From NCBI RefSeq assembly GCF_013112485.1, contig NZ_JABFHG010000007.1:124001-188000 (forward strand): DNA of 64,000 nt, read 5' to 3'. Shown piece after piece: positions 39,511-57,841 of the stretch. Each line of letters starts with the position of its first letter. The stretch's first letter is position 1. The notes under the pieces were generated by a model that was given only the letters and a program-made list of their open reading frames with translations, was not told where the DNA came from and made no database searches. The DNA comes from Roseicella sp. DB1501. GTDB lineage: Bacteria; Pseudomonadota; Alphaproteobacteria; Acetobacterales; Acetobacteraceae. The position numbers and the translations under genes were made by a program.

Positions 39511-40656
39511 CTATAGGGAGCGCAGCCGGGTCAGCAGGCGGTCCACTTCCGCCTCGGTGTGATAGAGGCCGAAGCCGAAGCGCAGGCGGCGGCCGCGCCG
39601 GTCGGTGACGATCCCGGCGGCGGCGAGCCGTGCCTGCCAGGCCTCGGCTTCCTCCAGGTCGAAGGCGAGGAAATTGCCGCGTCGGCGCTCGGCGAGCGGC
39701 ACCACCAGCCGCGCCGGATCGAGCCCGGTGCCGGGCAGACCGGCGACGAAGCGCGCCTGCAAGGCATGGCTATGGGCATGGATGGCGCCGGCATCGAGGC
39801 CGAGCCCGGCCAGCCAGTCCATGGCCGCATTCAGCCGGTACAGGCCGGAAGGGTCGAAGGTGGCGCCCATGAAGCGCCAGCCATCCGCCGCATAGCCAAC
39901 GCCATCGCCGCCCCCGGCCAGGGCGCCGAAGCCGGCGAACCAGCCGGTGACGCGCGGCCGCGGCAGCCAGCCGGGCGGGGCGTGCAGGAAGCAGGCGCCC
40001 TCGCCCGCCATGGCGTATTTGTAGCCGCCGGCGAGGTAGAAGGCGCGGTCGGCGAGGCTGGCGAGATCGACCGGCTTCGCCAGGAAGGCGTGGTAGCCAT
40101 CGATCACCAGCACCGCCTCGCCCGCCGCCGCGGCCAGCGCCGCGAACCCCTCCTGGGCATAGCCGCTGTGGAAGAAGACCTCGCTGCTCCAGATCAGGTC
40201 GAAGCCCTGCGGCGCCGTCTCGACCAGGCGCGGCAGGCAGTCCGGGCCGGGCTCGCTCGGGATGCGGGTGACGGTGACCAGCCCCTCCTCCTCCAGCCGC
40301 GCGAGCTGGCGGGCGAGGCTGTGGAACTCGCCATCCGTGGTCAGCAGGCGCGGCGGGCGACGCGCCGGCAGGGAGGAGAGCAGGCGCAGCACGAATTCAT
40401 GCGTATTGGGCGCAAAGGCGATGGTCGTCGGATCGGACAGCGCCAGGTGCCGCGCGATATGCCGCTGCGCCGCCTGCCAGATCGGGCCGAGCACATGCTC
40501 CCACTTATCGTCCTGCAAGCGGGCCGCATCGTCCCAGGCGGCGAGCTGCGCTTCACGCGTTACGTCGGGCCAGGGATGGTGGCTGTGCGCGGCGACATGC
40601 AGCCGCTCCGGTTCGGCGCCGAGGAAGCGGGAAAAATGCGCGCGCAGGTCCAGCAT
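39511..40656 (-). CDS. Class V aminotransferase-fold PLP enzyme, kynureninase candidate
   Basis: PLP enzyme (381 aa) with the fold-type I class V pattern. It starts MLDLRAHFSRFLGAEPERLH, has AAHSHHPWPDV early, and the cofactor Lys at about 213 in GGYKYAMAGEGACF. It resembles proteins labelled kynureninase/PvdN-like, but it lacks the classic kynureninase start region. Context is the best guide: it is divergent from tryptophan dioxygenase with only 58 bp between, and a kynureninase is the missing step of the cluster. The GAGGGGAAAACC site fits ATG 40656. A shared palindrome-like operator lies between the two starts. Confidence 0.8.
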   Translation of the reverse strand: MLDLRAHFSRFLGAEPERLHVAAHSHHPWPDVTREAQLAAWDDAARLQDDKWEHVLGPIWQAAQRHIARHLALSDPTTIAFAPNTHEFVLRLLSSLPARRPPRLLTTDGEFHSLARQLARLEEEGLVTVTRIPSEPGPDCLPRLVETAPQGFDLIWSSEVFFHSGYAQEGFAALAAAAGEAVLVIDGYHAFLAKPVDLASLADRAFYLAGGYKYAMAGEGACFLHAPPGWLPRPRVTGWFAGFGALAGGGDGVGYAADGWRFMGATFDPSGLYRLNAAMDWLAGLGLDAGAIHAHSHALQARFVAGLPGTGLDPARLVVPLAERRRGNFLAFDLEEAEAWQARLAAAGIVTDRRGRRLRFGFGLYHTEAEVDRLLTRLRSL

Positions 40657-40677
40657 GGTTTTCCCCTCGCCTGTTCG

Positions 40678-40689
40678 TTTAAGCTTGAA
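40678..40689. promoter_or_regulatory. Candidate MarR operator, site 1 (variant)
   Basis: TTTAAGCTTGAA, part of the 14-bp near-palindrome GTTTAAGCTTGAAC. On the reverse strand (TTCAAGCTTAAA) it differs at 2 of 12 positions from the exact motif TTGAAGCCTAAA found at 45759, 45821 and 54678. It lies 21 nt before the PLP-enzyme start and 25 nt before the kynA start, so it can serve both. Confidence 0.55.
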
Positions 40690-40714
40690 CCATAGACCCG
40701 CAAGGAGGGTTGCC

Positions 40715-41542: not shown

Positions 41543-41548
41543 AGCGGT

Positions 41549-41940
41549 TCAATCCGGCAGGATCGCCGTCGCCTCGATCTCGACCCGCGCCTCCGGCTCG
41601 ACCAGCGCCGCCACCTGCACCAGCGTCATGGCGGGGAAATGCCGGCCCATCACGCCGCGATAGGCGGGGCCGAGAGCGGCGAGGCTGTCGCGGTACTCGG
41701 CGATGTCCGTCACGTACCAGGTGAGGCGGCCGATATGCTCCGCCCGCCCGCCCGCCTCGGCCAGCACGGCGAGGATGTTGCGCAGCGCCTGCTCCACCTG
41801 GGCGACGAGGCCGGTTGGGAAGCGTCCCTCCGCATCCCATCCCACCTGGCCGCCGACCAGCACCACGCGGCCCTGCCCCTCCATGCCGTTGGCATAGCCC
41901 TTCGGCACGGGCCAGTCCGGCGGTTGCAACCGACGGAGGG

Positions 41941-41944
<4 letters not shown>
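41549..41944 (-). CDS. RidA family protein, probable pathway deaminase
   Basis: RidA/YjgF-type protein (131 aa). It has VVLVGGQVGWDAEGRFPTG, the helix QALRNILAVLAEAGG, LTWYVTDIAEYR and the C-terminal strand EARVEIEATAILPD. It starts at GTG, overlapping the CoA-ligase stop by 4 bp (GTGA), so it is the last gene of the SDR-MarR-hydratase-ligase operon. RidA proteins hydrolyse enamines. The dearomatised product of 2-aminobenzoyl-CoA is an enamine, so this could remove its amino group; that is an inference from context. Confidence 0.85.
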
Positions 41945-43584
<1,640 letters not shown>

Positions 43585-43641
43585 CGCCGCCTCCAGCCGG
43601 TTGCGCCGCGTGACCTGCCTCCCCTCCCCCGAAGGGTGTTC

Positions 43642-44451
43642 CTAATCGCCCTTGAACTCTGGCCGTCGCTTGGCCACGAACCCTTCGTAGGCGCGGCGGA
43701 AATCGCCTGTCGTCATGCAGAGCGCCTGGGCCACCGCCTCGGCCTCGATCGCCTGCTCGACCGACATGGCCCATTCCATCTGCAGCATCCGCTTGGTCAT
43801 GGCATGGGCGAAGCCGGGGCCCTCGGCGAGCTCCCGCGCCAGTGCCGCCGCGGCGTCGGCCAGCGCGTCCGGCGGGTGCAGCGCGTTGAAGAAGCCCCAG
43901 GCCAGCCCCTCCTCGGCGCTCATCGCCCGGCCGAGATAGAGCAGCTCGCTGGCCCGCCCCTGGCCGATGATCCGCGGCAGAATGGCGCAGGCCCCCATGT
44001 CGCAGCCGGCGAGGCCGACGCGGTTGAAGAGGAAGGCGGTCCTCGCCCGCGGCGTCGCCAGCCGCAGATCCGCCGCCATGGCGATGATGGCGCCCGCTCC
44101 CGCCGCGACGCCATCGACCGCGGCGATGATCGGCTGCGGGCAGGCGCGCATCGCCTTGACCAGCTCCCCGGTCATGGCGGTGAACTGCATCAGCCCCCTG
44201 GTGTCCCGCTCGAGCAGCGGGCCGATGATCTCGTGCACATCGCCGCCCGAGCAGAAATTCCCGCCCGCCCCGGCGATGGTGAAGACCCGCACCGCCTCAT
44301 CCTGCGCCGCCTTGCGGAACAGCCCGGCGAGCTCGGCATAGCTCTCGAAGGTCAGCGGGTTCTTGCGCTCCGGCCGGTCCAGGGTGATGACCGCGACCGC
44401 ATCCTCGACGCTGAGCCGAAAATGCTCGGCATGATGACCGGCGATGCTCAT
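43642..44451 (-). CDS. Enoyl-CoA hydratase/isomerase family protein
   Basis: Crotonase-fold enzyme (269 aa). The oxyanion segments are [15 protein letters not shown] and [19 protein letters not shown]. The active-site helix reads [20 protein letters not shown]: the usual Glu is missing and an Asp (CDMG) sits near the second position, a pattern seen in branches acting on ring-derived CoA esters. It may hydrate or open the alicyclic CoA intermediate made by the monooxygenase/reductase. Its ATG overlaps the MarR stop by 4 bp. Confidence 0.88.
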
Positions 44452-44960
44452 GCCTCCTCCCCCTCCAGCCCGGCCCGCACGCTCGCCTTGGCGCGACCGA
44501 GCAGGGCATGCAGCGCGGCGCGCTCCGCCGGGGCGAGGCCGGTCAGCAATTCGGCGATCCAGTCCTCATGCACCCGCGACTGCCGGGCGAATTCGCGGCG
44601 GCCGCGCGCGGTCAGGCGCAGGGTCTGGGCGCGCCGGTCGGTCGGACTCACCCGCCGCTCGATCAGCCCCTCCTCCTCCAGCCGGGCGGCGAGGCCGGTG
44701 ACATTGCCGTTGCTGACCATCATCCGGCGCGAGACCTCGCCGAGCGTCAGCCCGCCCGGCGCCCGCTCGAGCTGCGCCAGCAGGTCGAAGCGCGGCAGGG
44801 TGGTGTCGAACTCCCGCCGCAGCCGGCGGCGGATCTCCGCCTCGATCAGAGTGGTGCAGGTCAGCAGCCGCAGCCAGAGCCGCAGCTCGTCCTTGTGGCC
44901 GGGCGGCGCGCCGGCCAGCGCCGTCTCGGCATCGACATGCCGGGTGAGGTCGTCGGGCAT
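44448..44960 (-). CDS. MarR-family transcriptional regulator
   Basis: Winged-helix regulator (170 aa). The DNA-binding part is [20 protein letters not shown], then [20 protein letters not shown], the wing typical of MarR proteins. Regulators of this group in aromatic-CoA pathways are commonly relieved by the CoA thioester intermediate. It lies inside the operon it probably controls: the SDR stop overlaps its start by 1 bp and its stop overlaps the hydratase start by 4 bp. The repeated TTGAAGCCTAAA motif in the cluster is its best candidate binding site, though this is unproven. Confidence 0.9.
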
Positions 44961-45742
44961 CAGACCTCGCCTCCGGCGATCGGGATGGCGGCGCCGTTGA
45001 CCGCCGCGGCGCCGGGCAGGCAGAGGAACAGTGCGGCGGCTGCCACCTCCTCCGGCCGCACCAGCCGCCCCTGCGGGTTGTGGCGGGCGAGGCTGGCGCG
45101 CGCCGCCGCCGCATCACGCCCGGTCCGGCGGGTGATGGTGCCGATGCTGGCATCGAGCAGCGGTGTCTCGGTGAAGCCGGGGCAGAGGGCGTTCACCGTC
45201 ACGTCGCGCCCCGCTACTTCCAGCGCCAGTGCCCGCACTAGGCCGAGCAGCCCGTGCTTCGCCGCCGCATAGGCCGCGACATAGCGATAGCCCTTCAGCG
45301 CCGCGGTGGAGGCGACGGCGATGATGCGCCCCTCCCCCGCCGCCAGCATGCCGGGCAGCACCGCGCGCATCACCGCGGCGGCGCCGAGCAGGTTGACCGC
45401 GAGCATGCGCTGCCAGAGTGCGTCGTCGCTCTCAAGGAAGGGCGCGCTCTCGGCGGCGCCGGCGGCGTGCACCAGGATGTCGCAGGGCGGCAGGTCCGGC
45501 AACGGGCCGGTGATGTCGGCGGCGATGGCCTGCTGCGCCGCACCCGCCGCCACCGCCTCCCGCAGCATCGCCTCGCGCCGGCCGAGCAGCGTCACCGTGG
45601 CGCCGGCCTCGGTCAGCGCCCGGGCGCAGGCGAGGCCGATGCCGCTGCCGCCGCCGGTGACCAGCGCGCGCCGCGCCGCGAGCGGCGACGCGGCCTCCGG
45701 TGCCCGGCCAGGATGCGGTCCAGGATGCGGCAAGGCGTCCAT
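44960..45742 (-). CDS. SDR family oxidoreductase of the aromatic-CoA operon
   Basis: Classical short-chain dehydrogenase (260 aa). It has the cofactor motif TGGGSGIGLA, the Ser in VASTAALKGY, and the catalytic Tyr/Lys as YAAAKH; the C-terminus is complete. It likely oxidises a hydroxyacyl-CoA or ring alcohol formed downstream of the monooxygenase/reductase. It is first in the reverse-strand operon, and an exact TTGAAGCCTAAA site begins 17 nt before the start. The ATG at 45742 has GAGGAGAGGG in front. It is divergent from the bifunctional enzyme. Confidence 0.9.
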   Translation of the reverse strand: MDALPHPGPHPGRAPEAASPLAARRALVTGGGSGIGLACARALTEAGATVTLLGRREAMLREAVAAGAAQQAIAADITGPLPDLPPCDILVHAAGAAESAPFLESDDALWQRMLAVNLLGAAAVMRAVLPGMLAAGEGRIIAVASTAALKGYRYVAAYAAAKHGLLGLVRALALEVAGRDVTVNALCPGFTETPLLDASIGTITRRTGRDAAAARASLARHNPQGRLVRPEEVAAAALFLCLPGAAAVNGAAIPIAGGEV

Positions 45743-45758
45743 GCCCTCTCCTCGATGC

Positions 45759-45770
45759 TTGAAGCCTAAA
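45759..45770. promoter_or_regulatory. Candidate MarR operator, site 2
   Basis: TTGAAGCCTAAA, inside ATGCTTGAAGCCTAAAA, lies 16 nt before the SDR start codon. An identical 12-mer begins at 45821 in the same 115-bp divergent region, serving the opposite gene. Confidence 0.7.
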
Positions 45771-45820
45771 ACATCCCGTCGCCGGCCCGCAATGCCGGAT
45801 TGCGGTTGCCGCACGAATGC

Positions 45821-45832
45821 TTGAAGCCTAAA
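45821..45832. promoter_or_regulatory. Candidate MarR operator, site 3
   Basis: TTGAAGCCTAAA, followed by ATATCC, ends 25 nt before the bifunctional enzyme start. The TAAAAT inside it could be the -10 box, so a bound repressor would block RNA polymerase. The flanks (ATGC before, ATCC after) match site 2. Confidence 0.7.
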
Positions 45833-45857
45833 ATATCCGACAGCAGGAGGCGACCCG

Positions 45858-48176
45858 ATGCGCATTGCGATCATCGGCGGGGGACCCGCCGGGCTCTATT
45901 TCGCCATCCTCATGCAGCGCGACCATCTCGGGGCTCGCATCACGGTGGTGGAGCGGAACCGGCCCGAGGACAGCTTCGGCTTCGGCGTGGTGTTCAGCGA
46001 TGCGACGTTGGACGCCTTCGCCGCCGCCGATCCGCCGAGCTATCGCGCCATCACCGACAGCTTCGCCTATTGGGACGATGTCGAGATCCATGCCCGCGGC
46101 GCGGTGCACCGGATCGGCGGCAACGGCTTCTGCGGCAGCGCCCGCACCACGCTGCTGCGCCTGCTGCAGGATCGCGCCCGCGGTCTCGGCGTCGAGCTGC
46201 GCTTCGGGGTGGAGGCGCGGCCGGAGGATTTCCCCGAGGCCGACCTCGTCGTCGCGGCGGACGGCATCAACAGCCCGATCCGCCACCGCTTCGCCGCGGA
46301 CTTCCGGCCGGAGACCGGCCTCCGCCCCAACCGCTTCGCCTGGATGGGCTCGACCCGTCCCTTCGACGCCTTCACCTTCTTCTTCAAGGAGCGGCCGGAG
46401 GGCATCTTCATCGCCCATTGCTACCAGTACGCCCCGGGCGCCAGCACCTGGGTTCTGGAGACGGACCCCGAAACCTTCGCCCGTGCCGGGCTCGATTCCA
46501 TGGACGAGGCGGCAAGCGCCCGCTTCCTGGAAGGGGTCTTCGCCGAGGAATTGCAGGGCCACCGCCTGCTGACGAACCGCTCCCACTGGCGGCAATTCCC
46601 GCAGATCCGCTGCGGCCGCTGGGTGCGCGGCAACCTCGTGCTGCTCGGCGACGCCAAGGCCAGCGCGCATTTCTCCATCGGCAGCGGCACCAAACTCGCC
46701 ATGGAGGATGCGATCGCGCTGCACCGCGCCTTCCGCGACGGGGGCGGCGTGGCGGAGAGCCTCGCCCGCTTCGAGGCAGAACGGCGCGAGGAGGTGGAGA
46801 AGACCCAGCACGCCGCCGATGTCTCGCTGGTCTGGTTCGAGCATGTGCGGCGCTTCTGGCGCATGCAGCCGGTGCGCTTCGCCTTCGGGCTGATGACCCG
46901 CAGCAAGGCGATCACCTGGGACAACCTGGCGCTGCGCGCGCCGGATTTCGTCGCCGAGACCCAGGCGGCCTTCGCGGCGGAAGCGGGTGGCGACCCGGCG
47001 AAGCCGCCGATGTTCCAGCCCTTACGGCTGCGCGGCATGGAGCTCGCCAATCGCGTCGTCGTCTCGCCCATGTGCATGTACTCGGCCGAGGAAGGCTTGC
47101 CGGGTGACTTCCACCTGATGCATTACGGCGCCCGCGCCGCCGGCGGCGCCGGGCTGATCTTCACCGAGATGACCTGCGTCTCGCCCACCGCCCGCATCAC
47201 CCCGGGCTGCGCCGGGCTGTGGAACGACGCGCAGGAGGTGGCCTGGGCGCGCATCCTGCGGCTGGTGCATGCGCAGGGCCCGGTGCGGATGGCGCTGCAG
47301 CTCGGCCATGCCGGCCGCAAGGGCGCGACGCGGCTGATGTGGGAGGGCATGGACCGGCCGCTGGCCGAGGGCGCCTGGCCGATCCTCTCTGCCAGCCCCC
47401 TGCCCTACTACCCAGACAGCCAGGTGCCGCGCGAGATGAGCCGCGCCGACATGGATGCGGTCATCGCGGATTTCGTCGCCGCCGCCAGGCGCGGCGCGCG
47501 GGCGGGCTTCGACATGCTGGAGCTGCACTGCGCCCATGGCTATCTGCTGGCGAGCTTCCTCTCGCCGCTGACCAATCGCCGCCGGGATGAGTATGGCGGC
47601 CCGGTGGAGAACCGGCTGCGCTTCCCGCTCGAGCTGTTCCGGGCGCTGCGCGAGGCCTGGCCGGCGGACCGGCCCCTCTCGGTGCGCCTCTCCGCCACCG
47701 ACTGGGCGGATGGCGGCATCACGGATGCTGATACGCTCGCCATCGCCCGCGCCTTCGCCGCGGCGGGCTGCGACCTGATCGACGTCTCGACCGGCCAGAC
47801 CGTGCAGGATGCCGCGCCGGTCTATGGTCGCATGTTCCAGGTGCCCTGGTCCGACATGATCCGGCAGGAGGCGGGCATCGCCACCATGTGCGTCGGCAAC
47901 ATCACCAGCGCCGACCAGGTGAACACCATCCTCGCCGCTGGCCGCGCCGATCTGGTGGCGCTGGCCCGGCCGCACCTGACCGACCCGGCCTTCACCCTCC
48001 GCGCTGCGGCGCAGTGCGGCGTCGCCGACATTGCCTGCCCGGTGCAATATGGCTGGGGCAAGGACGCGCTGCTGCGCAACGCCGCGAAGGAACAGGAGGA
48101 GCTGCGCGAGCTGCGGCTGAAGGCGCGGCCGCGCCGTCACGCCCCGCTCTCCCCTCTCCCGCGCGCCGCCGAATAG
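45858..48176 (+). CDS. Bifunctional FAD monooxygenase/old yellow enzyme (2-aminobenzoyl-CoA monooxygenase/reductase type)
   Basis: Fusion protein (772 aa). Residues 1-370 are a class A FAD monooxygenase (GGGPAG at 7-12, [32 protein letters not shown]). From about 378 an old-yellow-enzyme barrel follows ([55 protein letters not shown]). This layout is known for 2-aminobenzoyl-CoA monooxygenase/reductase of Azoarcus evansii, which hydroxylates and then reduces the ring, and for salicylyl-CoA 5-hydroxylases. Anthranilyl-CoA is favoured by the tryptophan genes around it. An AGGAGG site precedes the ATG. It heads the forward transcript, with an operator-like site 25 nt upstream. Confidence 0.93.
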
Positions 48177-48240
48177 GGGCAGGATCGAGCCTGCCGGGCG
48201 CTCGCGCGTCCCGGCGGCAACCGGGATGCGGAGGATGCGC

Positions 48241-49461
48241 ATGCATGTCCTGATCGCCGGCGGCGGGATCGGCGGCCTCACCCTTGCCCTGATGCTGCAG
48301 CAGCGCGGCATCGCCTGCACGGTGCTGGAGGCGGCGCCGGAGGTGCGGGAGCTCGGCGTCGGCATCAACAACCTGCCGCATTGCGTCGCGGAGTGGGAGG
48401 CGCTCGGCCTGCTGCCGGAGCTCGACCGCATCGCCATCCGCACGCGCGAGCTGCGCTACCTCAACCATCTTGGCCAGACCCTGTGGCAGGAGGCGCGCGG
48501 CACCTATGCCGGGCATGCGCTGCCGCAATTCTCCACCCATCGCGGAAGGCTGCACGGGATGCTCTGGCGCGCCGTCGAGGCCAGGCTGCCGGCGGGCGCG
48601 CTGCGCACCGGGCATCGCCTCGCTGCCGTCGAGCAGGATGCCGCGGGCGTCACCGCGCGCTTCGCCACGGGGACGGGCCACGAGACGCTCCGCGGCGAGG
48701 TGCTGGTCGGCGCCGACGGCATCCATTCGGCGCTGCGGGCGATGCTGCACCCGGCCGATGCCGGCATCCGCTGGCAGGGCGTGATGATGTGGCGCGGCGC
48801 ACTGGACTGGCCGGCCTATGAAACCGGCGACGTGATGTTCATCGCCGGCGACCTGAAGACCAAATTCGTCTTCTATCCCGTCGGCCCCGGCAGCAGGCCG
48901 GATCGCCGGCTGACCAACTGGGTGGTCTATTCCCGCCTGGCGACAGGCGAGAGGCCGCCGCCGCAGCGCGAGGATTGGTCGCGGCCCGGCCGGCTTGAGG
49001 ACGTGCTGCCGCTGGCGCAGCGGCTGAAGTTGCCCTTCCTTGATGTCGAGGCGCTGGTCCGCGCCTCGCCGCAGCGGCTGGAATACCCGATGTGCGACCG
49101 CGACCCGCTGCCCTGGTGGAGCGAGGGGCGGGTGACGCTGCTCGGCGACGCGGCGCATGCGATGTATCCGGTCGGCTCCAACGGCGCCTCGCAGGCAGTG
49201 CTGGATGCGCGGGCGCTGGCCGATGCGCTGGCGGCGCAGCCGGCCGAGCAGGCGCTGAAGGCCTATGAGGCGGAGCGGCTGCCGAAGACCGCGGCGATCT
49301 GCGCCAGCAACCGCAAGGGCGGGCCGGAACGGGTGATCGACGTCTTCGGCGAGCTGGCACCGGATGGCTTCGGGCGGATCGAGGAGGTGATCCCGCCCGA
49401 GGATGTCGCGGCGATCGTCCGCGGCTATGCCCAGCTCGCCGGCTTCGCCCTGCCGCTGTGA
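48241..49461 (+). CDS. FAD-dependent monooxygenase
   Basis: Class A flavoprotein monooxygenase (406 aa). It has GGGIGG (7-12), the GADGIHSALR middle motif and LLGDAAHAMYPVGSNGASQA. It has no CoA-ligand hint, so an ordinary aromatic acid or amine is a likely substrate; kynurenine 3-monooxygenase cannot be claimed. ATG 48241 follows GGAGGATGCGC; ATG 48235 is possible. It lies 64 bp after the bifunctional enzyme on the same strand, so it probably belongs to the same transcript. It converges on the cupin gene over repeat B copy 2. Confidence 0.88.
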   Translation: MHVLIAGGGIGGLTLALMLQQRGIACTVLEAAPEVRELGVGINNLPHCVAEWEALGLLPELDRIAIRTRELRYLNHLGQTLWQEARGTYAGHALPQFSTHRGRLHGMLWRAVEARLPAGALRTGHRLAAVEQDAAGVTARFATGTGHETLRGEVLVGADGIHSALRAMLHPADAGIRWQGVMMWRGALDWPAYETGDVMFIAGDLKTKFVFYPVGPGSRPDRRLTNWVVYSRLATGERPPPQREDWSRPGRLEDVLPLAQRLKLPFLDVEALVRASPQRLEYPMCDRDPLPWWSEGRVTLLGDAAHAMYPVGSNGASQAVLDARALADALAAQPAEQALKAYEAERLPKTAAICASNRKGGPERVIDVFGELAPDGFGRIEEVIPPEDVAAIVRGYAQLAGFALPL

Positions 49462-49472
49462 TATCAGTCGCG

Positions 49473-49574: not shown

Positions 49575-49643
49575 ATGAATGAAGCATTCATTCCTGCCGC
49601 TGGCAGGAGATCCTCTCGCAACCTGGTAGGGCGCCCTGCCCGC

Positions 49644-50096
49644 TCATCCCGGCGGGGGGAGGAAGTCCACCTCATGCGCCGCGGAGAGCCGCACCACCTC
49701 CTCCACATCGGTGAGGTCATGCAGCGACCGGAACAGGTCGTGCAGCTTGCGGGCCGGAGTCACCCAGAAGAAGGCGCGGGCCGGCGCCCCGCTCTCGTTG
49801 AAATAGCCATGCATGATGCCGCGCGGCATGCGCACCAGGTCGCCGGCCGAGGCGTGGTGCGTCTGCCCATCGAGGATCAGCTTCCAGGTCCCCTCCAGCA
49901 TCAGGATGTACTCGTCCTGCGTGGGATGGATGTGCGGCGGCACGAAGGTGCCGGGCGGGCTCACCGCCTCGAAGGCGAAGCTGTCGCCGGTCGATTGCTT
50001 CGGATAGTAGGTCTGGCCGAGGATATTCCAGACCGTGCCCTCCGCGCCGTCGAAGCCGGTGCCGGCGCGGGTGATGCCTGCGGTCTCCGCTGTCAT
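49644..50096 (-). CDS. Cupin domain-containing protein
   Basis: Single-domain cupin (150 aa) with motif 1 PPHIHPTQDEYILMLEG (two His and a Glu) and motif 2 near PRGIMHGYFN, so a metal site is likely. It is last in the ABC-importer operon, starting 15 bp after the LivF stop. Cupins of this size act as isomerases, decarboxylases or dioxygenase-like enzymes; the sequence does not tell which. The site GAAGGGAC precedes ATG 50096. Its place with the importer suggests a role in handling the imported compound. Confidence 0.85.
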   Translation of the reverse strand: MTAETAGITRAGTGFDGAEGTVWNILGQTYYPKQSTGDSFAFEAVSPPGTFVPPHIHPTQDEYILMLEGTWKLILDGQTHHASAGDLVRMPRGIMHGYFNESGAPARAFFWVTPARKLHDLFRSLHDLTDVEEVVRLSAAHEVDFLPPPG

Positions 50097-50111
50097 GCTG
50101 CTGTCCCTTCC

Positions 50112-50827
<716 letters not shown>

Positions 50828-50828
<1 letters not shown>

Positions 50829-51583
50829 CAGGCCGCCTCGTCCTCGCCCAGATAGGCGTCGCGGACCGCCGGATCGGCTCGAATCGCCGCCGGCGCGCCG
50901 CTCGCCAGCAGCCGCCCCTGCACCAGCACGGAGATGCGGTCGGCGAGGGTGAAGACCGCCGGCATGTCGTGCTCCACCAGCAGGATGGCGTAGCGCCCGC
51001 GCAGCCCCTGCAGCAGGGCGATGAGGCGCTCGGCCTCCTCCGGCCCAGTGCCGGCCAGCGGCTCGTCGAGCAGCAGCAGCCGCGGCTCCATCGCCAGCGC
51101 GATGGCGAGCTCGAGCTGCCGCCGCTCGCCATGCGAGAGCGCCGCCGCCGGCACCGCCGCGCGCCCGGCGAGGCCGGTCCGCGCCAGCGCCGCCATCGCC
51201 ACCTCGTTCAGCGCCGCCTCGCCCGCCGCCGGCCGCAGGAAGCGGAAGGAGGAGCCGCTGCGCGCCTGCACGGCGAGCGCGACATTCTCGAGCGCCGAGA
51301 AGCCGGGCAGCACGGAGGTGATCTGGAAGCTGCGCGCCAGGCCGAGCCGCGCCCGGCGGGCCAGCGGCAGCGCTGTGACATCCTGGCCGGCGAAGAGCAC
51401 CCGGCCGGCATCCGGCCGCAGGGTGCCGCTGATCTGGTGGATCAGCGTCGTCTTGCCGGCACCGTTCGGGCCGATGACGGCATGGATCTCGCCCGGCATC
51501 ACATCGAGCGAAACATCAACCGTCACCGTCAGCCCGCCGAAGCGCTTGCGCAGCCCGTCGAGGCGCAGCACCGGCTCAGCCAC
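50828..51583 (-). CDS. livG: ABC transporter ATP-binding protein, LivG type
   Basis: ATPase subunit (251 aa) with Walker A GPNGAGKT (38-45), signature LSHGERRQLELAIAL and Walker B LLLLDEPLAG. It begins at GTG and overlaps the LivM stop by 8 bp, which indicates tight translational coupling. It matches the LivG branch (AVIGPNGAGKTTLIHQISG). It works with LivF on the LivHM permease. Confidence 0.92.
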
Positions 51584-52526
51584 GGCGGCGCATCCCGGCG
51601 AGTTGCGCCGGCAACCCGACCAGCCCGCCGCGCAGGAACAGCACGGCGAGCACCAGCAGCGGGCCGAGCAGCAGCCGCCAATGCGTCGTCAGATGCCCGA
51701 GCCATTCCTCCAGCAGCAGCAGGGCGAGCGTGCCGAGCACCGCGCCGAAGGGGCTGCCGAGACCGCCGAGGATCACCATGAACAGCAGCTCGCCCGAGCG
51801 CTGCCAGGCGAGGAAGGAAGGGGCGACGAACTCCGTCGCATTCGCCAGCAGGAAGCCGGCGAGCCCGGCCATGCCGCCGGCGATGCCATAAGCGAGAAGG
51901 CGATAGGGGTAGGGCGAGAGCCCGACCGCCTGCACGCGCAGCGGGTTCTCCCGCGCCGCCCGCAGCACCCGCCCAAAGCGCGAGGCCAGCAGCATGCGGC
52001 AGGCCAAGTAGGCGCCGGCCAGCAGGGCGAGGCAGAGATAGTGGAAGCCCAGCCGGCTCTCCAGCCAGCGCGTGCCGGCGAGGGTGCTGCGGCCATAGAG
52101 CGTGTAGCCGTCATCGCCGCCATAGCCGGCGAGGGAGGCGGCGGTGAAGAAGGCCATCTGCCCGAAGGCCAGGGTGATCATGATGAAAGGCACGCCGGCC
52201 GTGCGCAGCGCGACCGCGCCGGTGAGCAGCGCGAAGAGCGCCGCGCCGCCGATGGCGACCGGCGCGACGACCAGCGCCTCCGTCACCCGCGCATCGTCGA
52301 GCGCCACCACTGCATAGGCGCCGATGCCGAGCATGGCGGCATGGCCGAGGCTGACCAGCCCGGCGCCGCCGACGACGAGCCAGAGCGAGAGGGCAGCGAG
52401 GCCGAGGATCATGCCGCGCGCCAGCAGCGTCATCACCCAGCCCTCGCCTAGGCCGAGGAGCGGCGCCGCCGCCAGCAGGGCGAAGACGAGGAGCGGCAGC
52501 GCCGCGGCGCGCAACGCCGAGACCAC
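51576..52526 (-). CDS. livM: Branched-chain-type ABC permease, LivM type
   Basis: Inner-membrane permease (316 aa) with about 8-10 hydrophobic segments. It has the LivM features SLGHAAMLGIGAYAV, the GRVLRAARENPLRVQAVGLSPY cytoplasmic loop that contacts the ATPase, and VILGGLGSPFGAVLG. It starts at GTG (52526), 5 bp after the LivH stop. It pairs with LivH to form the channel. Confidence 0.9.
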   Translation of the reverse strand: MVSALRAAALPLLVFALLAAAPLLGLGEGWVMTLLARGMILGLAALSLWLVVGGAGLVSLGHAAMLGIGAYAVVALDDARVTEALVVAPVAIGGAALFALLTGAVALRTAGVPFIMITLAFGQMAFFTAASLAGYGGDDGYTLYGRSTLAGTRWLESRLGFHYLCLALLAGAYLACRMLLASRFGRVLRAARENPLRVQAVGLSPYPYRLLAYGIAGGMAGLAGFLLANATEFVAPSFLAWQRSGELLFMVILGGLGSPFGAVLGTLALLLLEEWLGHLTTHWRLLLGPLLVLAVLFLRGGLVGLPAQLAGMRRRG

Positions 52527-52531
52527 CCCGC

Positions 52532-53455
52532 CTAGCCCGCCCGCGCCGGGAAAAGGCCGCGCGGCCGCACCGCGAGGATCAGCGCCATGGCGATGTAGAC
52601 CAGCATGGAGCCGATCGAGGCCCCGGCCTGCCGCGCCGGGGAGGGCGCCAGGACGAGGCGCAGCAGCTCCGGCAACAGCGAGCGGCCGAGCGTCTCCACC
52701 AGTCCGACCAGCAGCGCCGCGAGGAAGGCGCCGCGCACGCTGCCGATGCCGCCGATGACGATGACGACGAAGGCTAGGATGAGCACCGTGTCGCCCATCC
52801 CCGGCTCGACCGAGAGGATGGGCGCCGCCATCATCCCGGCGAAGCCCGCCAGCATGGCGCCGATGCCGAAGACCAGCAGGAAGAGCCGACTGGTATCGAT
52901 GCCGAGCGCCGCCAGCATCGGCCGGTTGCTCGCCCCGGCCCGCACCAGCGCCCCGGCCCGCGTATGCTCGACCAGCAGCCAGAGCAGCCCGGCCGTGGCG
53001 AGGCCGGCGGCGAGGATCGCCAAGCGATAGAGCGGGTATTGCAGCCCGGGCATCAGCGTGATGCCGCCCTCCAGCAGCGCTGGGGTTGCGACCTGCAATG
53101 GTGCGCTGCCCCAGAGCAGCGTCACCGCCTCGTTCAGGGTGAGGATGACGCCGAAGGTCGCCAGCACCTGCGCCAGGTGGTCGCGGTCGTAGAGATGTCG
53201 GAAGATGAGGAATTCCAGCGCCAAGCCACAGGCGAGCGTCGCCGGCAGGGCGAGCAGCAGGCCGAGCCAGAAGCTGCCCGTCGCCGCGGCGAGGCTGGCG
53301 CCGAGATAGGCGCCCAGCATGTACTGCACGCCATGCGCGAGGTTGATGACATCCATCACCCCGAAGACCAGGGTGAGGCCGGCCGCGACGAGGAAGAGAA
53401 GGATGCCGAATTGCAGGCCGTTCAGCGCCTGCACCAGCATGAGCTGCGTCGTCAC
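52532..53455 (-). CDS. livH: Branched-chain-type ABC permease, LivH type
   Basis: Inner-membrane permease (about 307 aa). It has the LivH start QALNGLQFGILLFLVAAGLT, LVFGVMDVINLAHG, and later GIGSVRGAFLAALLVGLVETLG. The start is GTG 53455, 10 bp after the binding-protein stop; ATG 53440 (MLVQALNG) is an alternative, and neither has a strong ribosome site. It is second in the operon behind the binding protein. Confidence 0.9.
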   Translation of the reverse strand: MTTQLMLVQALNGLQFGILLFLVAAGLTLVFGVMDVINLAHGVQYMLGAYLGASLAAATGSFWLGLLLALPATLACGLALEFLIFRHLYDRDHLAQVLATFGVILTLNEAVTLLWGSAPLQVATPALLEGGITLMPGLQYPLYRLAILAAGLATAGLLWLLVEHTRAGALVRAGASNRPMLAALGIDTSRLFLLVFGIGAMLAGFAGMMAAPILSVEPGMGDTVLILAFVVIVIGGIGSVRGAFLAALLVGLVETLGRSLLPELLRLVLAPSPARQAGASIGSMLVYIAMALILAVRPRGLFPARAG

Positions 53456-53465
53456 GCCGTGGCCG

Positions 53466-54647
53466 TCAGCGCATGCGGCACTCGACCGCCCAGGGATCGG
53501 TGTCGTTCTCCAGCACCTTGCGCACCGTCTCGGTCTGGAACTTGCCGTCCGGCCGCTTCGCCACCTGGCAGAGCCAGAAATCCTGCACCGGATAGTGGTT
53601 GGCGCCGAAGCGGAAATTGCCGCGCACCGACTGGAACTCGGCGGCGCGGATCGCCGCGCGCAGCGCGTCCTTGTCGGCGAGCTTGCCGCCGGTCTTGCGG
53701 ATGGCGCTGTCGAGCAGCATGGCGGCGTCGTAGCTCTGCGCCGCGTAGCTGCCGGGCACATAGCCATGGGCGGCCTCGAAATCCGCGACGAAGCGCCGGT
53801 TGGCGGCATTCTCCATGTTCGGCGCCCAGGGCGCCGCGGAATAGAAGCCGACCGCCGCATCGCCCTGCGCCGGCAGCGTCGCCTCGTCCACCGTGAAGGT
53901 CGAGAGGAAGGGAATGCTGGCGAGGCCGGCCTGGCGGTATTGCCGCACCAGGTTCACGCCGAGCCCGCCCGGCATGAAGGTGAAGATGGCATCCGGCTTG
54001 CTTGCCGCGATCTTCGCCAGCTCGGCGGAGAAATCGAGCTGGTTGAGCGGGACATAGACCTCGTCCGCCACTTCGCCCTTGAAGCGGCTCTTGAAGCCGG
54101 CCGCGGCGTCGCGCCCGGCCTGGTAATTCGGCGTCATGACGAAGACGCGGCCGTATTTGCTGTCGGTCGCCGCCTGGCCCATGACGGAATGGACCTGGTC
54201 GTTGTTGTAGGAGGTGGTGAAGAAATACGGGTTGCAGCCGCGCCCGGCGAAGGTGGAGGGCCCGGCGTTGGTCGAGATGAGGAAGGTGTTTGTCTCGGTC
54301 ACCGGCCGCATGATGGCGGCCAGGATGTTCGAGAAGACGACGCCGGCGACGATATCGACCTTGTCGCGCTCCAGCGCCGCCCGCACCTTGGTGACGGCGA
54401 CTTCCGGCCGCAGCTCGTCGTCGATCATCACCACCTCGGCCGGCAGGCCGCCGAGCTTGCCGCCTGTATGCTTCAGCCCCTGCAGGAAGCCGTCCCGAAG
54501 CTGCGTGCCGAGCGCCGCCTGCGGCCCGGTCTGCACCGCGACGAGGCCGATCTTCACGCTCGCACCCTGGGCCCGGGCGCGGATCGCCGGCAGCGCCAGG
54601 GGTCCCGCCGCCGCAACGCCCAGCACTGCGCGCCTGCCGATCGCCAT
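53466..54647 (-). CDS. ABC transporter substrate-binding protein (LivK/branched-chain type)
   Basis: Periplasmic binding protein (393 aa) of the LivJ/LivK clan. The N-terminus has a GRRAVLG twin-arginine-like signal, cut near ARA. The mature part shows KIGLVAVQTGPQAALG and a closing VRGNFRFGANHYPVQDFW segment. Members near aromatic-catabolism genes often bind aromatic acids. The GGAGG site is 8 nt before ATG 54647. An exact TTGAAGCCTAAA site sits 30 nt before the start, which places the importer in the same proposed MarR regulon. Confidence 0.9.
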   Translation of the reverse strand: MAIGRRAVLGVAAAGPLALPAIRARAQGASVKIGLVAVQTGPQAALGTQLRDGFLQGLKHTGGKLGGLPAEVVMIDDELRPEVAVTKVRAALERDKVDIVAGVVFSNILAAIMRPVTETNTFLISTNAGPSTFAGRGCNPYFFTTSYNNDQVHSVMGQAATDSKYGRVFVMTPNYQAGRDAAAGFKSRFKGEVADEVYVPLNQLDFSAELAKIAASKPDAIFTFMPGGLGVNLVRQYRQAGLASIPFLSTFTVDEATLPAQGDAAVGFYSAAPWAPNMENAANRRFVADFEAAHGYVPGSYAAQSYDAAMLLDSAIRKTGGKLADKDALRAAIRAAEFQSVRGNFRFGANHYPVQDFWLCQVAKRPDGKFQTETVRKVLENDTDPWAVECRMR

Positions 54648-54677
54648 GCCCATCCCCTCCGTCCACGTGGCGATTAG

Positions 54678-54689
54678 TTTAGGCTTCAA
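54678..54689. promoter_or_regulatory. Candidate MarR operator, site 4
   Basis: On the reverse strand the sequence is TTGAAGCCTAAA, identical to sites 2 and 3. It lies between the formamidase stop (54693) and the binding-protein start (54647), so it can control the importer operon separately from the genes before it. TAAACT inside it is a possible -10 box. Confidence 0.7.
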
Positions 54690-54692
54690 TCG

Positions 54693-55502
54693 TCACCGGA
54701 CCGCAAGGGCCATGGCGGCGGCGCGACGCGCGAGCGAGCTGTCCGACTCGGCGAGCGGGGCGATGACAGTGAAATGATCGCGCGCCGGCAATTCCTCCGA
54801 GGTCCCGCCCCAGGCGGCGGCGAAGTCGCGCGCCTGACGGCGGAACTCGTCGCTCTCGGCGCTGCCGACCACGGCATGCAAGGTACCGCCGGGCGGGGGC
54901 AGGTAGCGCGGCGAGAAGGCGCGCGCCATCTCCGGCGTCAGGTGCAGGGCGGCGGCGATCGTCGTCGGCAATAGCGGCTCGAGCTCGAAGACGCCCGAGA
55001 TCGGCAGGCCCGCCGGCACAAGATCGGCCGGCAGCCGCGCATCCTGGGCGCGCCAGTCGGTGGCCATCAGCATCGCGGTCAGATGGCCACCGGCGGAATG
55101 GCCGCTCGCCAGCAGCCGGCGCCCGGTGCGGCGGTGCAGCAGCAGCGCCGCCGCGCGCATCTGCCCGATGATCGCCTCCAGCGTCACCTGCGGGCAGAGA
55201 TCATAGGAGGGAATGGCGACGGCCACGCCCCGCGCCAGCAACCCGCGCGCCAGATGCGAGAAGAAGCTGCGGTCCAGTGCCTGCCAGTAGCCGCCATGGA
55301 TGAAGAGGGCGGTGGGCCAGTCCTCGCCGGGTCCGGGGCGGAACAGGTCGAGCCGCTCCCGCTCCCCGGGACCATAGGGCAGGCCGAGTTCGGCCTCCCG
55401 CCATGCCGCGCGGAAGGCGGCCGCGTCGCGCTGCCAGCCCGCGATGATCGCCGGGTGTTCCGGCACCCGCGCCCGGTTGTCGTATTCGGCCTGTGCGTCC
55501 AT
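54693..55502 (-). CDS. Alpha/beta hydrolase, arylformamidase-like
   Basis: Alpha/beta hydrolase (269 aa) with the kynurenine-formamidase hallmark HGGYW (69-73) and the nucleophile elbow SGHSAGGH (S136), plus a histidine in RDHFTV (H243). Esterase-type arylformamidases turn N-formylkynurenine into kynurenine and formate. With kynA nearby, this is the likely second step. It lacks the cyclase-type KynB fold, so the symbol is left open. The ATG at 55502 lies 40 bp after the CoA-transferase stop, and its own stop is followed by the importer operator. Confidence 0.85.
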   Translation of the reverse strand: MDAQAEYDNRARVPEHPAIIAGWQRDAAAFRAAWREAELGLPYGPGERERLDLFRPGPGEDWPTALFIHGGYWQALDRSFFSHLARGLLARGVAVAIPSYDLCPQVTLEAIIGQMRAAALLLHRRTGRRLLASGHSAGGHLTAMLMATDWRAQDARLPADLVPAGLPISGVFELEPLLPTTIAAALHLTPEMARAFSPRYLPPPGGTLHAVVGSAESDEFRRQARDFAAAWGGTSEELPARDHFTVIAPLAESDSSLARRAAAMALAVR

Positions 55503-55542
55503 GCCGCCATTGCAGCGCCGGGGCGCCGCGCCGGCAAGCGGT

Positions 55543-56763
55543 TCAGATCGCGCCGTCCCGGCGCAGGGCAGCGATCGCCTCGGCGGCGAGGCCGAGCCGC
55601 TCCCGCAGCACCGCCTCGGTATCGGCGCCGCGGGCGCGGCCGGCATGGCGCAGCGCGGCCGGCGTCTCGGTCAGGCGCGGCACCGGCGCGGGCAGCACCA
55701 GCTCGCCCACCCGCGGATCGACCAGGCGCAGCAGGTTGCCGCGGGCGGCGACATGCGGATCGGCGAAGATGTCGGCGATGCTGTTGATCGGCCCCCAGGG
55801 CACGCCGGCCGCATCGCAGATGGCACCGAGCGCCTCCATGCCCAGCCCCGCCGCCCAGTCGGCGACCAGGCCGTTGACCTCGCCGCGGGCGGCGATGCGC
55901 TGCGCCGTGGTGGCGAAGCGGTCCGGCCCGGCGAGCTCCGGCTTGCCCATGGCCTCGGCCAGCCGCGCGAAGATCTTATCGCTGGTGCAGGCGATGGCGA
56001 CCCAGCGGCCATCCGCGGTCTGCCAATGGCCGTGCGGCACCACGGTCGGCACATCCGCCCCCATGCGCTCCCGCACCACGCCGTGCCGGGCATAGGCGGG
56101 CGCGGTCTCGTCGAGCAGGCGGAAGACGGATTCGTAAAGGCCGATATCGACATCCTGGCCCCGGCCGCTGCGCTCGGCGACGCGCAGCGCCAGCATGACG
56201 CCGAGCGCCCCCCAGAGGCCGGAGAGGTAGTCGGCGAGCGAGGTCGAGCCGGGCACCACCGGCTTGCCGTCCGGCTCGCCGGCCAGGTAGCTCAGCCCGC
56301 CGAAGCCATGCGCCACGCGGGCGAAGCCGGGCAGGCCGCGCTTTGGCCCGGTCTGGCCATAGGCGCTGACCCGCAGCACGACGAGGCGTGGGTTGATCGC
56401 GCGCAGGCTGTCCGGCGAGAGGTCCCACTTTTCCAGCGTGCCGGGGCGGAAATTCTCCAGCACCACATCGACCTGCGCGACCAGCCGGCGGAACAGCGCC
56501 GCGCCTTCCGGATGCCGCAGGTCGAGCGTCATGCACTGCTTGTTGCGGGCCTCGCTCAGCCAGACGAGGGTGTCGCCGCATTCGGTCGGGGTGCCGAAGG
56601 CGCGCATCGGGTCGCCGAGTCGCGGGTGCTCGATCTTGATGACCGTGGCGCCGAAATCGGCCAGCACCGTGCCGGCGAAGGGCGCGGCGAGGAAGGTGGC
56701 GATGTCGAGCACCGTGACGCCGGCGAGCGGTTGCGGCAGCGCCGCCGTCTCCCCGGCGCTCAT
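55543..56763 (-). CDS. CaiB/BaiF (class III) CoA transferase
   Basis: CoA transferase (406 aa). It has the N-terminal LAGVTVLDIATFLAAPFAGT, the IKIEHPRLGDPMR strand, the DVVLENFRPGTLEKW block and the C-terminal domain GRGQDVDIGLYES. It would move CoA between two acids. The ATG overlaps the stop of the CitE-like gene by 4 bp (ATGA), and the formamidase gene follows 40 bp later. The acid pair is unknown; a ring-cleavage dicarboxylate is a guess from context. Confidence 0.92.
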   Translation of the reverse strand: MSAGETAALPQPLAGVTVLDIATFLAAPFAGTVLADFGATVIKIEHPRLGDPMRAFGTPTECGDTLVWLSEARNKQCMTLDLRHPEGAALFRRLVAQVDVVLENFRPGTLEKWDLSPDSLRAINPRLVVLRVSAYGQTGPKRGLPGFARVAHGFGGLSYLAGEPDGKPVVPGSTSLADYLSGLWGALGVMLALRVAERSGRGQDVDIGLYESVFRLLDETAPAYARHGVVRERMGADVPTVVPHGHWQTADGRWVAIACTSDKIFARLAEAMGKPELAGPDRFATTAQRIAARGEVNGLVADWAAGLGMEALGAICDAAGVPWGPINSIADIFADPHVAARGNLLRLVDPRVGELVLPAPVPRLTETPAALRHAGRARGADTEAVLRERLGLAAEAIAALRRDGAI

Positions 56764-57692
56764 GCCGCCTCTCCCGCTTGCTGCAGGATCTCGCGCGCCA
56801 TGCGCGCATGCACCGCATCGAGCATCACGCCCCCCTCCCCCGTCGCCCCGGCGCCCGCCGCCTCCGCCCGCGCCAGCAGCGCCAGAACCTGCCGCGCCCA
56901 GGCGACGCGCGCGGCATCGGGCGCGAAGACCTCGTTGATCACCGCGAGCTGGTCCGGATGGATCGCCCATTTCCCGGCATAGCCGAGCGCCCGGCCCCTG
57001 AGCGCGGCGGCGCGCAGCCCCGCGGCGTCGCGGTAATCGGCATAGACCGCATCGATGGGCAGCAACCCCTCGGCGCGGCAGGCATTGGCGATCCGGGCCA
57101 GGGCATAATGCCATTGGTCGAGCACCACCGGCGGCGCCTCCGGCGTCGCGCCGGGCATCGCATAGTCCGGGTTCGGCCGCCCGACCGTCGCATCCGGCGT
57201 CCGCATCGCCGCCATGTAGTCGCCGAGGCCGAAGATCATCGTCTCGAGCCGCGGATGCGCCGCGGCGATGGCCTCGGCCTGGCCGATGCCGCGCGGCGTC
57301 TCCACCAGCGCGGCGATGCCGATGCGCCGGCCCGGGCCGCGGGCCTGTTCGATGCCGTCCAGCAGCGCGGCGAGGAAGCGGATGTCGAAGGCATCCTCGG
57401 CCTTCGGCAGCACGATGCGGTCAAGCCGCGGGCAGGCGGTCGCCACCTCCACGATATCGCGGTGGCACCAGGGCGTACCAATGCCGTTTACCCGCACCGA
57501 GAGGATGCGGTCGCCCCAGTTCAATCGGTTGATGGCGGCGATGGCCTGACTGCGCGCGACATCCTTCTGGTCCGCCGCGACGCCATCTTCGAGGTCGAGC
57601 ACCACGGCATCAGCCCCACTCGCCGCGGCCCGGGCGAAGAAACGCTCGGTGCTGGCCGGGACCGAGAGTTCGCTGCGCTGGTGCCGGCCCAT
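56760..57692 (-). CDS. HpcH/HpaI or CitE-type CoA ester lyase
   Basis: TIM-barrel lyase (310 aa) of the HpcH/CitE family. It has RSELSVPASTERF at the start, the Glu/Asp metal-binding loops VLDLEDGVAADQKD and LVETPRGIG, then GLGDYMAAM and GKWAIHPDQ. Such enzymes split malyl-CoA-like or citramalyl-CoA-like esters. It is coupled to the CoA transferase, which could supply its CoA ester. The ATG at 57692 is used; a GTG at 57701 is also in frame. Confidence 0.9.
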   Translation of the reverse strand: MGRHQRSELSVPASTERFFARAAASGADAVVLDLEDGVAADQKDVARSQAIAAINRLNWGDRILSVRVNGIGTPWCHRDIVEVATACPRLDRIVLPKAEDAFDIRFLAALLDGIEQARGPGRRIGIAALVETPRGIGQAEAIAAAHPRLETMIFGLGDYMAAMRTPDATVGRPNPDYAMPGATPEAPPVVLDQWHYALARIANACRAEGLLPIDAVYADYRDAAGLRAAALRGRALGYAGKWAIHPDQLAVINEVFAPDAARVAWARQVLALLARAEAAGAGATGEGGVMLDAVHARMAREILQQAGEAA

Positions 57693-57814
57693 GGCGGTCA
57701 CGCTCGCCGCCCCGGCCGGTTCTGCCGGACCCGATCCATCATGCCGATGCCTCCCTCCCGTCCGCCTGGGACGTGCCGGAAAAGGGAAGCCCGGTTAACG
57801 AAACTGGGCAAGCG

Positions 57815-57835: not shown

Positions 57836-57841
57836 GGAGAG

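What the first reader, a model, noticed from the sequence alone, without database searches (positions are those of the whole stretch)
39511..57692. Tryptophan-to-2-aminobenzoyl-CoA catabolic island with its own importer
kynA, an arylformamidase-like hydrolase and a class V PLP enzyme could convert tryptophan to anthranilate. A benzoate-type CoA ligase, a FAD monooxygenase/OYE fusion, RidA, enoyl-CoA hydratase and SDR would then process it as the CoA ester, as in the aerobic route described in Azoarcus evansii. The same block holds a liv-type ABC importer, cupin, CoA transferase and CitE-like lyase. Having uptake, the kynurenine branch and the CoA route in one regulated block is unusual.
Basis: partly seen in the sequence, partly recalled or inferred. 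Interest (0 to 1): 0.72.

Follow-up and report, generated by a model that had tools for sequence, protein, structure and literature searches.

The report
Tryptophan-to-aminobenzoyl-CoA regulon with divergent kynureninase
A bacterium related to Roseicella carries, side by side and behind copies of the same short DNA site, genes that appear to turn tryptophan into anthranilate, import aromatic acids and break the ring as a CoA ester; most parts are known, but the kynureninase belongs to a divergent branch that NCBI's naming model misses.

Summary
The core (RidA, ligase, crotonase, MarR, SDR, fused FAD-monooxygenase/OYE) is the known 2-aminobenzoyl-CoA (abm) pathway. The class-V enzyme belongs to a divergent kynureninase branch: it misses NCBI's kynureninase cut-off, but active-site residues, an AlphaFold model (best PDB match kynureninase 1qz9), TDO linkage (75 of the 80 closest loci; adjacent in 6 of 11 in a wider sample) and complementarity with canonical kynureninase support it. 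A 12-bp motif, TTSAAGCYTAAA, has its only four exact matches in the 6-Mb draft genome before kynU/TDO, the abm operons (two) and the importer, which points to one regulon. Microvirga pudoricolor has the same combination in another order. Corrections: the importer's binding protein resembles aromatic-acid binders, not tryptophan binders; related importers occur in genomes without TDO or abm; hydrolase, CoA transferase and CitE lie upstream of the operator-bearing importer promoter and their roles are unproven. Tryptophan and abm genes in one organism are already published. No activity was tested. New variant of a known kind.

The parts
39511..40656 (-). divergent kynureninase (KynU-like, class V PLP enzyme)
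   Evidence: KYNU_C above cut-off; 1qz9 active-site residues align to invariant positions; best PDB match of the AF2 model by E-value is kynureninase 1qz9; TDO-linked in 75 of the 80 closest loci
40678..40689 (-). operator-like motif TTCAAGCTTAAA between kynU and TDO
   Evidence: exact match to TTSAAGCYTAAA
40715..41542 (+). tryptophan 2,3-dioxygenase (GTG start inferred by eye); only TDO match in the genome
41549..41944 (-). RidA-family protein
   Evidence: 37% identical to the RidA near the pAL1 anthranilate genes
41941..43584 (-). anthranilate-CoA ligase (predicted)
   Evidence: best PDB hit anthranilate-CoA ligase 4wv3; 54% identical to the pAL1 ligase, a gene assayed in PMC3534580 (passages)
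43642..44451 (-). enoyl-CoA hydratase/crotonase family (NF006107)
44448..44960 (-). MarR regulator, candidate reader of the motif (inferred)
   Evidence: homologue near ABMR in 27 of 35 loci
44960..45742 (-). short-chain dehydrogenase
   Evidence: start shortened from the longest frame
45759..45770 (+). operator-like motif TTGAAGCCTAAA between SDR and ABMR
45821..45832 (+). operator-like motif TTGAAGCCTAAA, second copy
45858..48176 (+). 2-aminobenzoyl-CoA monooxygenase/reductase, ABMR (FAD monooxygenase fused to OYE)
   Evidence: NF006101 above cut-off; 51.8% identical to the pAL1 homologue
48226..49461 (+). FAD monooxygenase, PhzS-like (role unknown)
   Evidence: closest PDB chains 2rgj/3c96 (the name PhzS is recalled)
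49644..50096 (-). small cupin (role unknown)
50112..50828 (-). LivF-type ATPase
50828..51583 (-). LivG-type ATPase
51576..52526 (-). LivM-type permease
52532..53440 (-). LivH-type permease (start inferred)
53466..54653 (-). periplasmic binding protein of the importer
   Evidence: closest solved relatives 4evq/4evr, recalled as the aromatic-acid binder RPA0668; start corrected
54678..54689 (-). operator-like motif TTGAAGCCTAAA between the hydrolase stop codon and the binding-protein start
54693..55502 (-). alpha/beta hydrolase, candidate kynurenine formamidase (start approximate)
   Evidence: kynurenine formamidase 4e11 at E 8.6e-16, two other hydrolases closer; order LivF-hydrolase-TDO-kynU in M. 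pudoricolor
55543..56760 (-). type III CoA transferase (start approximate; membership in the system unproven)
56760..57701 (-). CitE/HpcH-like lyase (membership in the system unproven)

Best explanation
The block is a regulon for degrading anthranilate, both made from tryptophan and taken up from outside, by the aerobic CoA route. TDO opens the indole ring; a formamidase (perhaps the linked alpha/beta hydrolase) removes formate; a divergent kynureninase yields anthranilate and alanine; the ligase makes 2-aminobenzoyl-CoA; the fused monooxygenase/OYE hydroxylates and dearomatises it; crotonase, SDR and the RidA-type protein act on the products. A liv-type importer brings in an aromatic acid, most likely anthranilate. 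The linked MarR represses the three motif-bearing regions and is released by a pathway metabolite. Shown by computation: gene families, kynureninase-type fold and active-site residues, TDO/kynU linkage, the shared motif. Inferred: formamidase, imported compound, MarR as the reader of the motif, its effector, and every reaction.
For: Ligase and ABMR family assignments. Kynureninase branch: residues matching D201, H204, Y226, K227, Y228, W256 and R375 of 1qz9 are invariant; AF2 pLDDT 91, best PDB match by E-value 1qz9, 2.2e-19; 75 of the 80 closest loci carry TDO, 68 within 300 bp; of 385 class genomes 11 have the branch and all 11 have TDO (67 of 385 have TDO), and of 10 TDO genomes without canonical kynureninase 8 have it; alanine dehydrogenase in the same gene run in two loci. 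Motif: four exact sites in the draft genome, all in the island; 0.03-0.08 expected. In two Belnapia genomes (G121, G036) with kynU/TDO away from abm, similar sites stand before kynU/TDO, abm and the importer. M. pudoricolor has RidA-ACAD-ECH-MarR-SDR-ABMR-ligase facing binding protein-LivHMGF-hydrolase-TDO-kynU.
Against: No activity, binding or expression data. At up to one mismatch the pattern is no commoner in the genome than its reversed control (9 against 9), so the case rests on the exact matches and their places. kynU/TDO beside abm is rare: 1 of 35 abm loci and 3 of 80 kynU loci, one of them this genus. In the class sample kynU and TDO are adjacent in only 6 of 11 genomes, on different contigs in 5, and 3 of the 11 also have a canonical kynureninase. 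Only 15 of 80 kynU loci have a motif near kynU/TDO. Importer with hydrolase exists without TDO or abm; the hydrolase does not co-occur with TDO beyond chance (8 genomes, 5.9 expected, P 0.19). Cysteine desulfurases are close behind kynureninase in sequence and fold, and PvdN (5i90) has a slightly higher TM-score, 0.82 against 0.81.
Confidence: 0.75

Rival explanations
1. An anthranilate/aromatic-acid regulon (abm plus importer), with the TDO/kynU pair nearby for ordinary tryptophan turnover and no physiological coupling.
For: kynU/TDO is elsewhere in other genera of the family; the binding protein resembles aromatic-acid binders; the hydrolase co-occurs with ABMR (26 genomes, 13.5 expected) but not with TDO.
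Against: The kynU/TDO intergenic region carries one of the four exact motif copies; similar sites stand before unlinked kynU/TDO in Belnapia; all 13 family genomes with this kynU have ABMR, 3.4 expected (uncorrected for ancestry).
Confidence: 0.15
2. A salicylate route: the fused enzyme acts on salicylyl-CoA, as its NCBIfam name says, and the tryptophan genes are incidental.
For: NF006101 is named bifunctional salicylyl-CoA 5-hydroxylase/oxidoreductase; RPA0668, related to the binding protein, also bound salicylate (PMC3223731, passages).
Against: Ligase closest to anthranilate-CoA ligases; a RidA-type protein fits an amino intermediate; no gentisate dioxygenase among the listed matches of the 20 scanned proteins.
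Confidence: 0.06
3. The class-V enzyme is not a kynureninase but another lyase or desulfurase linked to TDO.
For: About 20% identity in the structural match; TIGR01814 matched only 7 of 37 members at E<=1e-3, and five cysteine-desulfurase-type models each matched more (12-20 members); PvdN has an equal TM-score.
Against: Kynureninase-type Tyr-Lys-Tyr and Gly-Trp positions invariant; KYNU_C matched in 36 of 37; complementarity with canonical kynureninase; alanine dehydrogenase in the same gene run in two loci.
Confidence: 0.1

Closest known systems
Aerobic 2-aminobenzoyl-CoA (abm) pathway of Azoarcus evansii (Schuehle 2001, not read; described in the review PMC4539516, passages seen)
   Same: CoA ligase, monooxygenase/reductase flavoenzyme, then beta-oxidation-type enzymes
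   Different: here linked by a shared motif to TDO/kynureninase and a liv-type importer; no acyl-CoA dehydrogenase among the scanned island proteins, unlike M. pudoricolor
Anthranilate CoA genes of Arthrobacter plasmid pAL1 (PMC3534580, passages seen; region listed)
   Same: ligase 54% and ABMR 51.8% identical, RidA-family gene nearby
   Different: anthranilate comes from quinaldine; PaaX-family regulators; no TDO or kynureninase annotated in the 20 kb listed; its cupin has no significant match to this one
kyn plus abm genes of Cupriavidus metallidurans CH34 (PMC8879955, passages seen)
   Same: tryptophan (kyn), kynU and abm genes annotated in one organism
   Different: no shared block or operator mentioned in the passages seen; that strain did not grow on anthranilate
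Canonical bacterial kynureninase (TIGR01814; 1qz9)
   Same: fold, active-site residues, association with TDO
   Different: divergent branch far below the curated cut-off
iad auxin-degradation locus of Variovorax (PMC9613470, PMC12633357; passages seen)
   Same: MarR-controlled route to anthranilate with an enzyme annotated as kynurenine formamidase and an ABC solute-binding protein
   Different: starts from indole-3-acetate with a Rieske-type oxygenase, of which none is among the 20 scanned island proteins

Membership tests
2-aminobenzoyl-CoA (abm) pathway | fused FAD-monooxygenase/OYE enzyme | tested here: met
   NF006101 1097.4 bits, cut-off 1078
2-aminobenzoyl-CoA (abm) pathway | 2-aminobenzoate-CoA ligase gene in the cluster | tested here: met
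   by homology only: 4wv3 best PDB hit, 54% to the pAL1 ligase
2-aminobenzoyl-CoA (abm) pathway | activity on anthranilate and 2-aminobenzoyl-CoA | not testable with these tools
   needs enzyme assay
kynureninase | NCBIfam TIGR01814 cut-off (246.4 bits) | tested here: not met
   no match for the window protein at E<=1e-3; best of 37 members E 9.2e-8, whereas hits near the cut-off have E about 1e-72
kynureninase | active-site residues of 1qz9 (their roles are recalled) | tested here: met
   D201, H204, Y226, K227, Y228, W256, R375 align to invariant residues
kynureninase | fold | tested here: met
   Foldseek best E-value 1qz9, TM 0.81; desulfurases close behind, PvdN TM 0.82
kynureninase | cleavage of kynurenine | not testable with these tools
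   needs enzyme assay
kynurenine formamidase (alpha/beta type) | homology to a solved kynurenine formamidase | tested here: inconclusive
   4e11 at E 8.6e-16, but 2pbl and 9n8r are closer
tryptophan 2,3-dioxygenase | Pfam and NCBIfam models | tested here: met
   PF03301 217.7 bits, cut-off 34.9; TIGR03036 379.4, slightly under 390.7, on an over-long frame
aromatic-acid ABC importer | binding protein binds an aromatic acid | not testable with these tools
   homology only

The most novel reading that the evidence does not exclude
A divergent kynureninase clade replaces the canonical enzyme in many Alphaproteobacteria, and in the Roseicella/Belnapia group a MarR regulator sensing a metabolite of the 2-aminobenzoyl-CoA pathway controls tryptophan ring opening, anthranilate activation and aromatic-acid import together through one operator, even where the genes are not neighbours.
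Probability: 0.5. Interest if true: 0.62.

Novelty: new variant of a known kind. Interest (0 to 1): 0.5.

Tried and rejected
Considered and rejected: one operon (five runs of genes by direction); a dedicated tryptophan importer; CoA transferase/CitE as proven pathway genes (close relatives linked only in the genus; CoA-transferase homologues of 37-38% identity lie in 3 other abm loci, so a role is not excluded); the pAL1 cupin as a relative of this cupin (E 0.16); a cyclase-type KynB (five PF04199 hits in the genome; best TIGR03035 score of the core segments that I gave was 36.1, cut-off 223). The kynU branch has no plasmid match at E<=1e-40. Literature: searches listed no paper whose title or opening abstract describes this kynureninase branch or regulon; only listings were seen, apart from the passages named, and the library is partial.

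Limits of the counts. The 39 ABMR genomes of 150 are my selection of rows (51% identity or more, including three contig-edge fragments G075, G114, G129; G127, 53% over the OYE part only, left out); 35 loci were fetched around 34 non-window genomes and G004, the window and three fragments G075, G114, G129 not among those 35. In one search, 18 importer loci were given and the window added; 17 were scored: 7 of 11 ABMR+ and 0 of 6 ABMR- reach score 17 (Fisher P 0.017), a threshold chosen after seeing the scores; one ABMR- genome (G106) scored 10.3. L155 and L156 gave no binding-protein hit and were not scored; L162, L164, L168 and L169 have no importer beside the hydrolase and were not given. The motif came from abm promoters including this genome's, and I had seen the kynU/TDO site by eye before searching; the importer site was found only by the scan, and the weight matrix excluded this genus. 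In one search one palindrome is counted on both strands. The best-80 list holds the closest relatives, so its TDO linkage (75 of 80) overstates that of the whole branch. None of the tallies is corrected for shared ancestry.
Full report
What is there. The window is contig C45:124001-188000 of a 5.99-Mb draft genome in 47 contigs. By direction there are five runs: kynU with a luciferase-like monooxygenase gene behind it (-), TDO (+), SDR-MarR-ECH-ligase-RidA (-), ABMR-FMO2 (+), and CitE-CoA transferase-hydrolase-binding protein-LivHMGF-cupin (-). The last run has a motif between hydrolase and binding protein.

The CoA route. The fused enzyme passes the NCBIfam model for ABMR-type proteins (1097 against 1078 bits). 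The ligase's best solved relative is an anthranilate-CoA ligase, and it is 54% identical to the ligase of plasmid pAL1. Expression of the two Rue61a ligase genes gave anthranilate-CoA ligase activity (PMC3534580, passages); I matched the pAL1 gene to that assay by its place before the ABMR-type gene. In 35 abm loci of the family, homologues of SDR are nearby in 34, RidA in 33, MarR in 27, ligase in 24 and crotonase in 16; kynU/TDO is nearby in one, that of the same genus; an importer of at least 60% identity is nearby in six. So the core is ordinary and the tryptophan neighbours are unusual.

The kynureninase. The genome has no canonical kynureninase (best TIGR01814 hit 20.8 bits, at another place, cut-off 246.4) and one TDO. 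The window enzyme has KYNU_C above cut-off; in its branch KYNU_C matches 36 of 37 members, while TIGR01814 matches 7 of 37, best E 9.2e-8, far from its cut-off. A profile search of PDB sequences finds P. fluorescens kynureninase 1qz9 first (E 8.5e-13), and its D201, H204, Y226, K227, Y228, W256 and R375 fall on residues invariant in the branch (catalytic roles recalled). The AlphaFold model (pLDDT 91) has 1qz9 as best match by E-value (2.2e-19, TM 0.81); cysteine desulfurases follow closely and PvdN has TM 0.82. A profile comparison with five canonical kynureninases gives probability 97 and E 1.2e-10.

Context of that branch. In a sample of 385 genomes of the class, 11 have the branch (E<=1e-80), 67 have TDO, and 77 have a TIGR01814 match at E<=1e-40 (75 above cut-off). 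All 11 have TDO (hypergeometric P 2e-9); of 10 TDO genomes without canonical kynureninase 8 have the branch; 3 of the 11 have both enzymes. kynU and TDO are within 400 bp in 6 of the 11 and on different contigs in 5. Alanine dehydrogenase is in the same gene run in two loci (before TDO-kynU in L118, directly beside kynU in L119), as expected if alanine is released. In 150 family genomes 13 have the branch; all 13 have ABMR (3.4 expected) and 10 have TDO. None of these counts is corrected for ancestry.

The motif. Reading promoter regions I saw the same 12-mer upstream of ABMR in many genomes (31 listed sites, one palindrome counted twice, in 22 of 29 loci). The pattern TTSAAGCYTAAA has four matches in the window at up to one mismatch, all exact (0.02 expected): between kynU and TDO, two between SDR and ABMR, and one between hydrolase and binding protein. 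In the whole draft genome these are the only exact matches; 0.03 to 0.08 are expected. At up to one mismatch the total equals that of the reversed control (9 and 9), so only the exact set is informative. The importer site also shows that the binding protein starts at 54653.

The motif elsewhere. In two Belnapia genomes (G121, G036), where kynU/TDO lies away from abm, similar sites stand before kynU/TDO (TTTAAGCTTAAA, TTTAAGCCTAAA), before ABMR (two exact each) and before the importer (TTGAGGCTTAAA, one mismatch). Upstream of the binding protein, 7 of 11 scored ABMR-bearing genomes and 0 of 6 scored ABMR-lacking genomes reach 17 (Fisher P 0.017; threshold set afterwards). Of 80 kynU loci 15 have a site near kynU/TDO, including Bosea, Chelatococcus and Ferrovibrio records whose ABMR status I did not test.

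Recurrence of the whole set. Microvirga pudoricolor carries RidA, an acyl-CoA dehydrogenase, ECH, MarR, SDR, ABMR and ligase facing binding protein, LivHMGF, hydrolase, TDO and kynU, with motif-like sites (one mismatch) before ABMR and between ligase and binding protein. A Phreatobacter MAG has a TDO fragment, kynU, RidA and ligase on one short contig and ABMR on another. Different orders of the same genes support a functional unit.

Importer and hydrolase. The binding protein's closest solved relative is 4evq/4evr, which I recall as R. palustris RPA0668; that protein bound benzoate, 4-hydroxybenzoate, salicylate and benzaldehyde in a thermal-shift screen (PMC3223731, passages). The same paper found that 11 of 75 screened proteins behaved as predicted from homology or context, so the ligand remains open; I favour anthranilate or a similar acid. 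The hydrolase matches kynurenine formamidase 4e11 (E 8.6e-16) but two other hydrolases better. It sits between LivF and TDO in M. pudoricolor, and no cyclase in the genome came near the KynB model. Against this, it does not track TDO across the family (8 genomes, 5.9 expected), tracks this kynU weakly (9, 4.5 expected, P 0.009) and ABMR strongly (26, 13.5 expected), and lies beside the importer in genomes with neither TDO nor abm.

Literature. Tryptophan, kynU and abm genes in one organism are described for C. metallidurans CH34 (PMC8879955, passages). The searches listed under Tried and rejected showed no title or opening abstract describing this kynureninase branch or this motif; the library is partial.

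Verdict. Known pathways in a rare arrangement, with two additions that can be tested directly: a divergent kynureninase branch and a shared operator-like motif.

Noticed in passing
window 48226-49461: PhzS-like FAD monooxygenase (closest 2rgj/3c96) sits beside abm in 7 of 35 abm loci and beside the importer-hydrolase genes in L163; its substrate is unknown.
   Followed up: partly
window 38549-39448: TIGR03619-family luciferase-like oxidoreductase directly behind kynU; near abm only in the same-genus locus L032 of 35.
   Followed up: no
window 55543-57701: Type III CoA transferase plus CitE-like lyase; close relatives beside this system only in the genus, CoA-transferase homologues of 37-38% identity in abm loci L046, L048, L050.
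   Followed up: partly
L085 1504-3705 (same branch in L184, a MAG labelled Roseomonas mucosa): The divergent kynureninase frame continues into PdxA (734 aa); PdxA and PdxJ follow kynU in 13 of 80 loci, which suggests a tie to PLP supply.
   Followed up: partly
L118 7477-8601, L119 10526-11713: Alanine dehydrogenase in the same gene run as the divergent kynureninase.
   Followed up: yes
L155 387-956 and similar frames in L154, L156, L161: Where abm is absent, the hydrolase-importer genes lie beside a gene like nucleoside 2-deoxyribosyltransferase (Pfam-tested in L155 only).
   Followed up: no
L244, L245, L250 (Bosea), L232, L233, L202: Perfect palindrome TTTAAGCTTAAA between TDO and kynU in other families; which regulator reads it there is unknown.
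   Followed up: no
window 57773-62787: RND efflux adaptor and AcrB-type pump genes next to the block.
   Followed up: no
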